In this document: positions 45,387-55,538 of the stretch, in pieces | Layout of the letters: each line of letters starts with the position of its first letter | Numbering within the stretch: the stretch's first letter is position 1 | Assembly (NCBI RefSeq): GCF_043290135.1 | Contig: NC_134709.1 | Coordinates: 109,485,645-109,549,644, forward strand | Length of the DNA stretch: 64,000 nt | Direction: 5' to 3' | Origin: Rhipicephalus microplus | Lineage: Eukaryota; Arthropoda; Arachnida; Ixodida; Ixodidae | Translations under genes and position numbers: made by a program | Notes under the pieces: generated by a model | The model's database searches: none | Told to the model about the DNA's origin: nothing | Seen by the model: the letters and a program-made list of their open reading frames with translations, nothing else

Positions 45387-48329
45387 ATGGCTTGGGAACG
45401 AAGCCGGCAAATGGAGTTGGAGTTAGAGCTCGCTAAATTACGTCCGGCAAGCCCATCAGGTAGCGTGAGTGATGCTGGCGGAACATTTGAGCGCTGCTCC
45501 AACACTGAGTGGCGCAAATACGCCAAATTGTTAGGGGGTGCTTTCGCGAAATTTCCCGCAGACGCGGAGGTCCCAATTTGGTGCGAGTCAGTGGAGCACA
45601 CTCTGGAGGCTTATGAGGTGCCTCGAAGTTATTGGGGACAAATAGTTTTTCCACTCGTGGCTGAGCGCATAGAGTATTTATCAACTCGGCTCACACCCGC
45701 CCAACATCGGGACTATGAGACCGTGAGGGAAGTAGTGCTTGATGAACTGAAGCTGTCTCCCTTAGAATACCAAAAGAAATTCACAGGGGCACGTAAACGA
45801 AAAACAGAGACGTGGAAAAGTTTTACAACAAGGTTGGGCAGCTACTTAAATTTTCACGTGGCGTCAAGAGACGTGTCCATCTTCGCGGAGCTTTTGGAGC
45901 TACTGGTAGTGGACCAATTGAAAACCGTGTTGTCTGAAGAGGCATTAAAATACTTGAGGTTACGTGGGGGGGCAGCGTGGTACAAAAGCACAGAAATTAC
46001 AAGGCTCTTGCACACCTTTGAAGACGCGAACGGCAGTGCGGAAGTGCAGAAAGGACAGCCGCGTAACGCCAGCAGTAAAGGGGTAGAAAAGACGACCGAC
46101 CATAAGAGTAGCAGCCCGTCGGGTCCGAGTCAGGGTTCAAATACGAGACCGAAGTGTTCGTATAATTCAGGTAGGCAACCAAGGAAATCGAGATGTTTTG
46201 AGTGTGGATCGAACACACATATTAGACTCAACTGCCCGCACTATCTTGAAAGGGTGGCGCCGAATCCTAGCGCTTCGGCGGGAAATGATAAACCCACTGC
46301 TCGAGTCTGCCTAGATAAGGTAACGTCTGCCGACCGCTTGTGGAAGGCAACTCTGAACTGCAAAGATAAAACTTTGAATGCAATAGTAGACACGGGCGCC
46401 GAGATTACGGTAGTGCAGGAAAGCGTAGTTCCTGAAGAACTTATCCAGGCCCATGGCCGCATAGGCCTCCGGGCCGCATTTGGTGAACGAGTCCAGGACA
46501 AACTAGTAGAGCTCCCGCTAACGCTGAAACAGGGGCAACCGGTGTTCGCCGAAGTTTCACACGCCACACCGGTCTTGTGTGCGGTCACAGATAAACTAAG
46601 CGTAAGTGAATGCCTGCTCTCGGCGAGCGATTGGACCGCGTTGCAGCAGAGCCAGTGTGAATACAACAAACAGGACACGACACTATCCCCCCGAAACTTC
46701 TCCGACGAACAACAGGCGGCCGCAAAGCTATATAGGAGAGTAGTAGAGCAGAGTAGACCGACTCCGGATTATCCGCGGTCAGCGGAGGGAAGCGTACTAC
46801 AGCCCAGCGAGGTCGAACGCACCCGGGAGGAAGAAGTGGTTACAGCCGTTGAGGTAGAGGAGGGAGAATTAGGGCCGGTTCGGATGGAGACAGAAGGAGA
46901 GCGTAACGCTAGAGAGAAAACACCACACACTGTCGAGAACGAGGCAAGTTGCGTGTCGCAAGGTGGCACAAGTGGCGAGAGGGGCGATTTCGAGGCGTTG
47001 CGTGAGGAACAAAAGAGTGACGAAACGTTGGGCCGGGCATGGAGAGTTGCCGCGGAAGGGCGAGGTGGAATGCTGGTGATTGACGGGTTGCTGTATCACC
47101 GAGAACAGGTATTTGGTCAACCGATCAAGCAGTTAGTTTTGCCGACCACCCGGCGGGCTGATGTGCTCAGCCTGGCGCATGAGTCGTATTGGGGCGGACA
47201 CCTGGGGTTTCGTAAGACGAAAACGAGAATTAAACTTAGTTTTTTTTGGCCAGGTATAAAAAAGGACGTTCGAAACTACTGCAATTGTTGTCACGCGTGC
47301 CAGATCAGGGCTGACAGGAGGCAGACAGACAGAGTTCCCATAGCGCCCCGCGTAAGGCCCCGATACCCCTTTCAGAAAGTCAATATCGACGTCGTAGGAC
47401 CAATTGAGCCGCCGACAACTCGCGGCCACCGCTACGCGTTGTGCATGATAGATCTGTGCACCCGCTGGCCTGAGGTCATATGCCTCAAATCATTGACAGC
47501 TAAAGCTACCTGCGACGCAATGTTGGAAATTTTCAGCCGCAGCGGGATACCAGAGGTAGTATGTTCAGATTGCGGGACCGATTTCACCGCCGCGCTGACC
47601 CGCGAATTCCTGACGCGCGTCGGCTGTTCCCCTCGGTTTTCAACACCGGACCACCCGTAAAGCAACGGAGCAGTCGAACAGTGGAACAGAGTATTCAAAA
47701 ACATGCTATTTCATGTGATATCCAAACAGGGGCGACAATGGGACAAGTTCGTGCCACTTCTACTGTGGGCATATAGAGAAGTTCCTCACGACACTACGGG
47801 CGTGTCCCCGTTCCAGATGATGTACGGCAGAAAACCCGTCGGTTCGCTCGCGATCCTACGGAGGGCTTGGTCGGAAGAACAGGAAATGCCCACGACAGTG
47901 GCAGACAAGCCGGCAGAGTATATGCGAAAACTGAAGCAACAGTTGGAGATAGCCGCGGAAGCTGCTAACGTGCCCGCAACTAAACAGCAGAGGGCGTACG
48001 CGACGCAATGCAACCTTCGTGCAAAAGAAAAGGAGTTTCAACTTGGGGAGCAGGTGCTTGTTTTTGATAGCAACCGTTCCGGTAAAACGCAACCGAAATG
48101 GGTAGGTCCGTGCAGGATCACAGGAAAGTACCGCCAACACTCCTATTACTTAGAGACGCCGGCGGGTAAGCGTATGCTAGTGCATGCCAACCACCTGCGC
48201 CCGTACATGTGCCGTGTCGCTGGCATTGGTGTCATATTCCATGACGACCACGAGTTCGGGGAGGTGGAATACGTGCCGCGTCCTGTCACCTCGCACGAAA
48301 GAGCAACTATCCTACCGACCGGCGGGTAG
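45387..48329 (+). pseudogene. Gmr1-type gag, protease and integrase
   Basis: Open for 757 codons to a TAA at 47658, then continuing in another frame (47703-48329). A SCAN-like gag region occupies about residues 112-195 (LEYQKKFTGARKRKTETW, LLELLVVDQLKTVL). The CCHC knuckle CFECGSNTHIRLNC is at about 270-283 and the protease motif VDTGAE at about 334-339. After a variable charged spacer comes integrase: HESYWGGH...CNCCHACQ zinc site, NIDVVGPI, VCSDCGTDF and, past the stop, GAVEQWNRVFKNM with the catalytic Glu. A C-terminal GPY/F-like module reads PKWVGPCRITGKYRQHSYYL. No RT precedes the integrase. The ATG at 45387 fits the gag start. Confidence 0.9.
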
Positions 48330-48333
48330 CTTG
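48317..48333. repeat. Target-site duplication, I-clade copy 2 (3' side)
   Basis: GACCGGCGGGTAGCTTG, identical to 54105-54121. Confidence 0.95.
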
Positions 48334-48604
48334 ATGATGATGAGTAGTTTTTAGTGGCGCAAGAGCCAATTGATGGCCAAAGAGCGCCATTTCAATTGAC
48401 TACAGATATGAACAATGATATGGTGCGTGGCTGTAAAGGGGCCTTAAAATTCCTCGCTCTAACGCGGGTTAAAACATGAAAGTAATAAAATCATGACAGT
48501 GACGTGACATATATGTAGTGACAGCGGATGGCAAAATGTCATGAAAATAAAACCATGATGAACATGTAGTCACCGCAGCCACGACCACTCTATAAAAGGT
48601 CGTG

Positions 48605-53577: not shown

Positions 53578-54104
53578 AAGAAGCATGTTAAATTCGGCGG
53601 CGATGGTGGCCACCCACCACCGAGCCCAACAAGGGGACGCTACAAGGTTGAATAGTGAACACTTGGAGACGCCAGCCATGCATCGCCGCTATAACCGAAT
53701 ATAACTACCCAAGGTTGGGTAACTACACAGGGTTAACCCTTGCCGCCAGGAAAATTGGAAGTAAACAGAAGAGAGTAGAAGACAGGACAGATAGATAGTG
53801 AGAGATAAAGACGAAGATGTAGGCAGAGAGAGATAGGAAAAGGCGACTGCCGATTTCCCCTGGGTGGGTCAGCCCAGGGGTGCCGTCTACGTGAAGCCGG
53901 GGCCAAAGGGGTGTGTTGCCTCTGCCTGGGGGCTTTAAAGGTCCAATCACCCAGCGTCAGCTCAACCCCCAGGATCCCCTTTTCCCCGGACACGGCAAAG
54001 CCACGCACGGCTAGGCGTGGGAGGGAGCCGAAACTCCCCCGTTAGCTCGGGTCCGTGGTGTCGCTACACACCAAACGCCTACTTGCGCAGGCGCCCCTGC
54101 GGGG

Positions 54105-54121
54105 GACCGGCGGGTAGCTTG
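54105..54121. repeat. Target-site duplication, I-clade copy 2 (5' side)
   Basis: Perfect 17-base match to 48317-48333. Confidence 0.95.
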
Positions 54122-55538
54122 GCTCATTTGCAGCCCCCTGAGAGAGTGTTGGTACGGGAGGTGTTTCAACGCCATGCGGCCTTATTTAGCGGAGAAGTGG
54201 GGATCGCGCAAGTCGGCGAACACAAGATAAGGCTTGTGCAAGGGGCCACGCCGAAACGTAGCCGCCCTTACCGCATGCCAGTGGCCTTCAAGGATGAGGT
54301 TTCGAAACAGATAGCGGAACTGCTCGAGCTTGATTTAATATACCGGTGCGAAAGTCCATTTGCTCACCCCCTTGTGTGCGTCCCAAAAAAAGATGGCACG
54401 GTGCGCCTGTGTGTCGATTACAGAAACTGAAATGCCATAACCGAACCAAACGCATTCCCGATGGGATTCCCGCAAGAATTGATCATGAATGTAGGTCAGG
54501 CTAGTTATATAACCCTCATTGATCTCCGACGAGGCTACTGGCAAGTTCCCTTAGCAGAGAGAGGGGTCACAGCGCATGACCGCGTTCGTGTCGCACCTAG
54601 GCCAGTTTGCTTGGAGGGTAATGCCGTTTGGGCTAAGGAAGGCGGCAGCCAGCTTTCAGCAGAGTATGAACCAGCTGTTAGCACCCCACGAGGCGTATGC
54701 CTGTGCCTACTTGGATGACATTGCGGTTTTCAGCAGGTCGCTACAGGAGCACGTCCGGCACTTCCATGCTGTGTTCTCCGCCCTAACGTCCGTAGGTCTA
54801 GTAGCTAACATGGAAAAATGTCAGGTGGTGTGCGCGTCTATCCGCTACCTCGGACATATTGTGGGATCGAGAAAGCACGGTCCGGACCCCAGCAAGCTCG
54901 CAGCTATTGAGGGGCTGCAAGTACCCCAGAATAACAAACAGTTAAGGAGTGTTCTAGGTCTGTGCGGGTATTACCGAGGTTACATACCCAATTTTCCTGG
55001 CATTGCCAAGCCCCTTACTCAATTGACGGCTAAACATGTTCCTAACCACATCCCTTGGACGCCCGAGGCCAACGAGGCATTTGCAAAACTCAAGGGTGCC
55101 CTGTGCAGCGCTGTTGAATTAACCACCCCAGACATTCACAAGCCGTTTTGGCTTTTTACGGACGCTTCCGCTATCGCTGTGGGAGCTTGTTTGGCCCAAA
55201 TGGTCGATGACGGTACCGAGTGCCCGATTGCTTTTGCCAGTCATCGCTTCACGCCTGCTCAGATGAAATGGTCTACGATAGAGTGCGAGGCGTTTGGTGT
55301 CATTTAGGGACTCAAAAAGTTTGACACCTGGGTATTCGGGGCCAAAATTTTTGTCGTCTCCGACCACAATCCGCTCGCGTATCTCACTCAAGCTGCGCCA
55401 CAAGGGGCCAAATTGATACGTTGGGCATTGGCTTTGCAGCGCTACGACGTGGTAGTGCAACACAGAAAGGGTACGGCACATGCTCACGCCGAGGAGCTTT
55501 CCCGGCTGACAAACCAATGCTGGGAGGAGGTGCAGTAG
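54122..55538 (+). pseudogene. Gmr1-type reverse transcriptase and RNase H
   Basis: Starts right after the LINE with LAHLQPPERVLVREVFQRH. RT motifs are FAHPLVCVPKKDGTVRLCVDYRN, LIDLRRGYWQVPL, MPFGLRKAAASFQQ and CAYLDDIAVFS (about 54705). RNase H has FTDASAIAVGACLAQ, IECEAFGVI, VSDHNPLAYL and HAEELSR. Stops occur at 54428 and 55306, and a frame change lies near 54575. The last RNase H acid is Glu in AEELSR where Asp is usual. The gene ends TAG at 55536-55538. Confidence 0.9.

What the first reader, a model, noticed from the sequence alone, without database searches (positions are those of the whole stretch)
45387..55538. Ty3/gypsy element with integrase upstream of RT (Gmr1-type order) in a probable arthropod
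Seen: gag, CCHC, protease and integrase motifs run to 48329, and RT and RNase H run from 54122. The only sequence between is an I-clade LINE bounded by a perfect 17-bp target duplication, so integrase and RT were adjacent before the insertion. Normal Ty3 pol has integrase last. Known: the Gmr1 group, first described from cod and other deuterostomes, has this order. Inference: if the source is a tick or another arthropod, the lineage is wider than its first descriptions, or was moved between phyla.
Basis: partly seen in the sequence, partly recalled or inferred. Interest (0 to 1): 0.85.

Follow-up and report, generated by a model that had tools for sequence, protein, structure and literature searches.

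The report
Tick Gmr1-type Ty3 retrotransposon, LINE-interrupted
This is a dead copy of a jumping gene from a probable tick that carries its integrase ahead of its reverse transcriptase, an unusual layout already known from fish, sea stars and shrimps, with a seemingly old branch of its own in ticks, scorpions and spiders.

Summary
A Ty3/gypsy element spans 43625-57694 (two ~1.3-kb LTRs, about 93.5% alike). It reads gag-CCHC-protease-integrase, then a minus-strand LINE (48334-54104) flanked by a perfect 17-bp duplication, then RT-RNase H. In three uninterrupted relatives (P0180, P0181 of Dermacentor andersoni, P0183) the left flank of the LINE ends, and the right flank begins, on the same residue, so integrase and RT were adjacent before the LINE came. 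Of 293 listed relatives, 246 have integrase before RT and 10 the reverse. Separate integrase and RT trees put the window in one tick clade, inside a group of integrase-first elements that includes vertebrate, echinoderm, mollusc and crustacean ones. Gag gives supporting evidence. So it is a Gmr1-type element by order and phylogeny, though no authentic cod Gmr1 was in the trees. Gmr1-like elements in arthropods are not new: crustacean ones were printed in 2013 (PMC3587641). The arachnid branch is distinct from the crustacean one; I found no paper naming it Gmr1, but it may be one of two chelicerate clades (Squirrel, Toxo) named in PMC4748124. Nothing in the rows examined indicates recent transfer between phyla.

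The parts
43620..43624 (.). 5-bp target duplication ACAGT, left
   Evidence: same ACAGT follows the 3' LTR at 57695-57699; outer LTR edge could be a few bases off
43625..44926 (+). 5' LTR
   Evidence: direct repeat families D1-D6 and D8; blastn 93.5-93.7% to the 3' LTR
44926..44945 (+). primer binding site candidate beginning TGG, directly at the LTR end
   Evidence: read from the sequence; likeness to a serine tRNA 3' end is recalled, not tested
45387..47657 (+). ORF: gag, CCHC knuckle (about 46194-46235), protease (about 46359-46454), integrase H2C2 (47142-47312) and core (47367-47657); followed by an in-frame stop
47661..48316 (+). rest of the integrase in the same frame, with a weak SH3/GPY-F-type match at about 48072-48206
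48317..48333 (.). 17-bp target duplication of the LINE, left copy
48334..54104 (-). inserted LINE: ORF1 52678-53679 (no Pfam match); ORF2 pieces with endonuclease 51067-52335, RT 50159-50872, RNase H 49061-49612
   Evidence: other stretches of the window match it at 69-77%
54105..54121 (.). 17-bp target duplication of the LINE, right copy
54107..54559 (+). IN-RT linker and first part of reverse transcriptase
   Evidence: tblastn with uninterrupted relatives
54561..55540 (+). rest of reverse transcriptase and RNase H, other frame, one in-frame stop
56319..56328 (+). purine-rich tract just before the 3' LTR
   Evidence: read from the sequence
56329..57694 (+). 3' LTR, with about 68 extra bases (56709-56777) against the 5' LTR
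57695..57699 (.). 5-bp target duplication ACAGT, right

Best explanation
It is a decayed copy of an LTR retrotransposon of the Gmr1 type in a tick genome. When intact, such an element makes one gag-protease-integrase-RT-RNase H polyprotein, which its protease cuts up inside gag particles. The RNA is copied from a tRNA primer, and the integrase, although made ahead of RT, joins the cDNA to the host genome with a short target duplication. This copy was hit by a minus-strand LINE in the integrase-RT linker and decayed by stops and frame changes. Shown: the order, the LTRs, the duplications, the adjacency before the LINE, the clade, the single-frame relatives, the decay. Inferred: the polyprotein processing, the tRNA primer, and the chemistry of integration, from knowledge of Ty3/gypsy elements.
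For: Domain order in the window. Flanks of the LINE meet on one residue in three uninterrupted relatives. Six of six relatives scanned with Pfam (a tick, an unnamed source, a scorpion, a spider, a sea star, an anchovy) have IN before RT. Of 293 listed relatives 246 are IN then RT, 10 RT then IN, 3 mixed, 28 without RT, 6 without IN. IN tree: window with P0183 and Dermacentor andersoni 100/94; the 54 integrase-first rows on one side of a branch, 94/95. RT tree: window with the same two rows 100/99; the 53 integrase-first rows on one side, 95/85. Gag: window against the deuterostome gag profile 99.1% probability, 98.2% without the zinc knuckle. LTRs and duplications.
Against: No authentic cod or Ciona Gmr1 sequence was in the trees; membership rests on order plus kinship with vertebrate and echinoderm integrase-first elements. 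Only 13 normal-order rows were available (11 proteins and two in-window elements), several on long branches and both in-window RT rows partial; two of the 11 (P0196, P0204) are classed as mixed order and were read as normal-order copies end to end. Pfam's SCAN domain is above cut-off in the sea star and the anchovy, far below it in one tick relative (13 bits, cut-off 27) and not listed in the other three arachnid-clade proteins scanned. The deuterostome gag profile also matches two of three normal-order control gags at 79-90% with the knuckle. The best solved-structure match of the integrase piece is a retroviral (PFV) integrase, ahead of Ty3. The host genome could not be searched.
Confidence: 0.93

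Rival explanations
1. The order is an accident of this one copy: two different or rearranged Ty3 elements lie side by side around the LINE.
For: The copy is broken and interrupted, and IN and RT are in different frames here.
Against: Both LTRs match each other at 93.5-93.7%. IN and RT have the same nearest relatives in separate trees. Three single-frame relatives have exactly this junction.
Confidence: 0.02
2. A Gmr1-type element that entered ticks recently from another phylum, for example from vertebrate blood hosts.
For: Integrase-first elements occur in vertebrates, and PMC4131045 (passages) counts about 200 Gmr1-like copies in a frog; ticks feed on vertebrates.
Against: Nearest rows are Dermacentor andersoni (84% in RT) and P0183 of unnamed host (86% in IN), then other tick, scorpion and spider elements, in a clade supported 100/100 that holds no named vertebrate row. 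Named vertebrate rows lie in another branch. Ixodid and argasid elements are mixed in two tick lineages, which suggests long residence.
Confidence: 0.04
3. The tick lineage gained the integrase-first order independently of the deuterostome Gmr1 group.
For: The arachnid-containing clade sits on a long stem (1.03 in IN, 0.49 in RT), and support for all integrase-first rows on one side of a branch is moderate (94/95 and 95/85). Normal-order sampling is thin and the root is not fixed.
Against: One change of order suffices on both trees (94% and 96% of 200 bootstrap trees). The capsid part of gag, knuckle cut off, also links arachnid-clade and deuterostome profiles (99.7%), while the two normal-order controls so treated give 1.0% and 1.8% against the arachnid profile; with the knuckle left on, one control reaches 58.7%.
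Confidence: 0.1
4. It belongs to one of the chelicerate clades Squirrel or Toxo named in the Ixodes scapularis genome paper, so the clade itself is already known, though not as Gmr1-type.
For: [quoted passage not shown] The arachnid-containing clade here fits that distribution.
Against: The paper describes TG..CA LTRs, 4-bp duplications and two ORFs; here the best reading of the ends is TG..CT with 5 bp, and the relatives have one long ORF. The passages do not mention an unusual order, and its supplement could not be opened.
Confidence: 0.4

Closest known systems
Gmr1 clade of Ty3/gypsy (Goodwin and Poulter 2002, seen only as a reference-list entry)
   Same: gag-PR-IN-RT-RH order; RT and IN trees join it to vertebrate and echinoderm integrase-first elements; gag profile alike
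   Different: host is a probable tick; the arachnid-containing branch is a distinct deep one; the SCAN-like capsid signature is below Pfam's cut-off or not listed in the four arachnid-clade proteins scanned
Crustacean Gmr1-like elements GyRex4, Gychoro2, GyMaja1, GyLiva4 (PMC3587641, passages read)
   Same: Gmr1-like elements in arthropods
   Different: the crustacean integrase-first proteins found here group with mollusc, echinoderm and hemichordate ones, and joining them with the arachnid-containing clade is rejected (p-AU 0.0007 for IN, 0.001 for RT; one of the eight rows counted as crustacean, P0053, has no named host). The four named elements themselves were not in the trees
Squirrel and Toxo clades of Ixodes scapularis (PMC4748124, passages read)
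   Same: chelicerate-restricted Ty3/gypsy clades; CCHC and GPY/F named among the shared features
   Different: domain order not stated in the passages read; LTR ends, duplication length and ORF number reported otherwise; sequences not seen
Normal-order Ty3/gypsy elements in the same window (12266-16031 minus; 32821-36709 plus)
   Same: Ty3/gypsy domains, same genome
   Different: RT and RNase H come before integrase in both, and both fall outside the integrase-first group

Membership tests
Gmr1 clade (Ty3/gypsy) | integrase between protease and RT | tested here: met
   relatives
Gmr1 clade (Ty3/gypsy) | RT groups with other integrase-first Ty3/gypsy RTs | tested here: met
   53 integrase-first rows on one side of a branch, 95/85
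Gmr1 clade (Ty3/gypsy) | IN groups with other integrase-first INs, and with the same relatives as RT | tested here: met
   54 rows on one side, 94/95; the same two rows join the window first in both trees
Gmr1 clade (Ty3/gypsy) | kinship with the named type elements (cod Gmr1, Ciona) | not tested
   no listed protein bore these names
Gmr1 clade (Ty3/gypsy) | SCAN-like capsid in gag (link between Gmr1 and SCAN recalled) | tested here: inconclusive
   Pfam SCAN above cut-off in 2 of 6 proteins (sea star, anchovy), 13 bits in tick P0181, not listed in P0183, P0214, P0240; gag profile comparison positive, with imperfect controls
Ty3/gypsy (Metaviridae) | Ty3-type RT and RNase H | tested here: met
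   best solved-structure matches 4ol8 (1e-32; that it is Ty3 RT is recalled) and Ty3-G Gag-Pol 7q5b (8.3e-32)
Ty1/copia | copia-type RT | tested here: not met
   the RT hit is PF00078 and no other RT family was listed for the pol pieces; that copia RTs match another Pfam family is recalled
Mag, CsRn1, Osvaldo | RT before integrase | tested here: not met
   that these clades have the normal order is recalled; no named member was in the trees
Squirrel / Toxo | kinship with the published Ixodes sequences | not testable with these tools
   supplementary look-ups capped at 0; main text read in passages only

The most novel reading that the evidence does not exclude
Arachnids carry their own deep branch of Gmr1-type elements, inherited mainly within arachnids since before ticks, scorpions and spiders parted. 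The integrase-first order arose once, before the protostome-deuterostome split, and arthropods hold at least two separate lineages of it (crustacean and arachnid).
Probability: 0.5. Interest if true: 0.4.

Novelty: new member of a known kind. Interest (0 to 1): 0.27.

Why it matters
It extends Gmr1-type elements to arachnids, with integrase and RT in agreement and gag in support, and shows that the arthropod ones examined are not one lineage. It also flags that several tick, spider and scorpion proteins annotated as uncharacterised or as transposon 17.6 or 297 Pol are of this type (for example P0181, P0214, P0232, P0234, P0243, all integrase-first). It does not change what is known of how such elements work.

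Tried and rejected
A search of viral contigs with the gag-IN ORF found no relative. Rfam gave no match at its gathering scores. The own-genome search was asked six times and never answered, so copy number and intact copies in the host were not seen. A chance or chimeric junction was rejected. Recent horizontal transfer was considered and set low. Independent origin of the order was not excluded, because only 13 normal-order rows were at hand.

Choice of rows: the trees used 64 of the 293 proteins plus window pieces, 67 rows each, chosen by hand for named hosts and spread; 19 of the 64 have no named host. In the careful trees three rows (winB_IN, P0251, P0225) were left out of IN and one (P0010) out of RT because they were partial or very long; the partial winB row was kept in RT. 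P0003, P0180 and P0183 were counted with the chelicerates, and P0053 with the crustaceans, by their place in the tree, and the groups tested were named after the trees had been seen. In the IN tree the named chelicerate rows are not one side of a branch (eight rows of unnamed host lie with the spiders), but holding them together is not rejected (p-AU 0.24). In one search four of 15 chelicerate-clade gags (P0192, P0199, P0202, P0232) and one of eight mollusc/crustacean gags (P0093) fell out because no CCHC pattern was found; six of the 11 chelicerate-clade gags left and two of the nine called deuterostome (P0266, P0270) have no named host.

Paper searches: Gmr1 with tick as whole words, none (this misses 'ticks'); Gmr1 with spider as whole words, only the crustacean paper; by word beginnings, gmr1 with tick, 50 papers, 20 listed, none about retrotransposons by title, and gmr1 with chelicerat, 3 papers, 2 listed. 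In the two of these that I opened, the match was a journal code in the reference list. Gmr1 as a whole word: 53 papers, 40 listed; gmr1 with gypsy: 33, all listed, none about an arachnid by title. Squirrel, Toxo, gypsy and retrotransposon together as whole words: none, a search that did not return PMC4748124 itself, so it is of little weight.
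Full report
What is there. The window holds many mobile elements. The element in question is bounded by two LTRs, 43625-44926 and 56329-57694, which match at 93.5% over 385 bases and 93.7% over 916. ACAGT stands on both outer sides. A TGG-starting primer site lies at the end of the 5' LTR and a purine tract just before the 3' LTR. The LTR end is not fully certain, because the 3' LTR could be read as a few bases longer.

Coding order. The first ORF, 45387-47657, holds a CCHC knuckle, a protease match just above Pfam's cut-off and the integrase zinc finger and core. 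The integrase goes on in the same frame to 48316 after an in-frame stop and ends with a weak SH3/GPY-F-type match. After the inserted LINE come RT and RNase H, 54107 to about 55540. Two other Ty3/gypsy elements in the same window have the normal order, RT and RNase H before integrase (12266-16031 minus strand, with a gag-like ORF up to 18829 that was not tested against Pfam; 32821-36709 plus strand). The unusual order is therefore not a feature of all Ty3 elements of this genome.

The LINE. It lies on the minus strand between two identical 17-bp copies and has endonuclease, RT and RNase H domains. Other stretches of the window match it at 69-77%, among them one with a single uninterrupted second ORF of 1250 aa at 1434-5186. 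To test adjacency I aligned each flank separately with relatives. The left flank ends and the right flank begins on residue 969 of P0181 (Dermacentor andersoni, 1461 aa), 1011 of P0183 (1487 aa) and 960 of P0180 (1434 aa); for three more distant relatives (P0003, P0192, P0189) the two matches stop 10 to 14 residues apart. Integrase and RT were therefore neighbours before the LINE arrived.

Relatives. Three protein searches listed 60 of 60, 120 of 1775 and 120 of 4933 matching proteins, 293 distinct ones. With profiles of the two domains, 246 of 293 have integrase before RT, 10 the reverse, 3 are mixed, 28 show no RT and 6 no integrase. The searches started from integrase-first queries, so these counts are no census. 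Six relatives (P0181 tick, P0183 unnamed, P0214 scorpion, P0240 spider, P0135 sea star, P0277 anchovy) were scanned with Pfam, and in all six a protease or knuckle match comes first, then integrase, RT and RNase H. In solved structures the RT piece matches 4ol8 and Ty3 Gag-Pol best; the integrase piece matches PFV integrase (3.5e-18) better than Ty3 (3.3e-12).

Trees. The integrase piece and the RT-RNase H piece of the window were placed separately. In the careful integrase tree (64 rows) the window joins P0183 and Dermacentor andersoni (100/94), then other tick elements (100/99), two elements of one scorpion species (92/84), and the arachnid-containing clade (100/100). In the careful RT tree (66 rows) it joins the same two rows (100/99), again inside tick, scorpion and spider elements (98/92) and the same larger clade (100/100). 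All integrase-first rows lie on one side of a branch in both trees (94/95 and 95/85), the normal-order rows on the other; the root is not fixed. The quick trees with all 67 rows agree (94 and 85 by SH-aLRT).

Gag. A profile of arachnid-clade gags matches the gag profile of deuterostome integrase-first elements at 99.9% (99.7% without the knuckle), and the window's own gag matches it at 99.1% (98.2% without the knuckle). Against the arachnid-clade profile the normal-order controls gave 58.7% with the knuckle for one in-window element (1.0% without), 0.1% for the other, and 1.9% (1.8% without) for P0058. The deuterostome profile, however, gives 89.6%, 0.6% and 79.4% with the same three controls (6.4% and 67.5% for the first and last without the knuckle), so gag is supporting evidence only.

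Breadth and inheritance. Crustacean integrase-first elements group with mollusc, echinoderm and hemichordate ones (100/100 in both trees), not with the arachnid-containing clade. Holding crustacean and arachnid-containing rows together is rejected (p-AU 0.0007 in IN, 0.001 in RT; groups named after seeing the trees). Within the arachnid-containing clade, the five spider rows form a group, as do the two rows of one scorpion species, and soft and hard tick rows are mixed within two tick lineages. This suggests long residence rather than a recent arrival. Eight rows of unnamed host also lie in this clade, so 'arachnid-only' is not shown; in the IN tree they lie nearest the spiders, though a group of the named chelicerate rows alone is not rejected (p-AU 0.24), and in the RT tree those rows are one group (98/92). 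The named chelicerate rows in these two tests include the window, P0003, P0180 and P0183, placed there by the tree.

Literature. [quoted passage not shown] PMC8220671 (passages) reports a Gmr1 family in an annelid, and PMC8556966 (passages) lists Gmr1 among clades present in several phyla. PMC6238403 (passage) gives the integrase-upstream order as the mark of Gmr1. [quoted passage not shown] I found no paper on Gmr1 in an arachnid: Gmr1 with tick as whole words gave none, with spider only the crustacean paper, whose passage names a spider crab, and wider searches listed none by title, though searches showed only part of their hits. Most subscription papers are not in that library, so this is weak evidence of absence.

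Verdict. The finding is real and correctly read. It is a dead copy, in a probable tick, of a known kind of element, in a branch that seems old in arachnids and that I did not find described as Gmr1-type. That is a modest extension of host range, not a new system.

Noticed in passing
1434-6403 (minus): A LINE of the same general type as the inserted one, with a single open second ORF of 1250 aa (endonuclease, RT, RNase H) and a first ORF of 394 aa; possibly a young copy.
   Followed up: partly
12266-16031 (minus), perhaps to 18829: A second Ty3/gypsy element, broken, with normal order PR-RT-RH-IN.
   Followed up: partly
32821-36709 (plus): A third Ty3/gypsy element, broken, normal order CCHC-RT-RH-IN; its RT end groups with a protein of the fish Archocentrus (P0251).
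   Followed up: partly
22174-26089 (plus): THAP domain followed by TNP-like transposase pieces: a P-element-like transposon.
   Followed up: no
29003-30484 (plus) and 30866-32476 (plus): A hAT-type transposase piece next to a 536-aa open DDE_1 / CENP-B-like transposase (pogo/Tigger type by recall).
   Followed up: no
59446-61239 (plus): A DDE_Tnp_1_7 transposase (piggyBac type by recall) in two ORFs.
   Followed up: no
56709-56777: About 68 bases present in the 3' LTR and missing from the 5' LTR of the Gmr1-type element.
   Followed up: no
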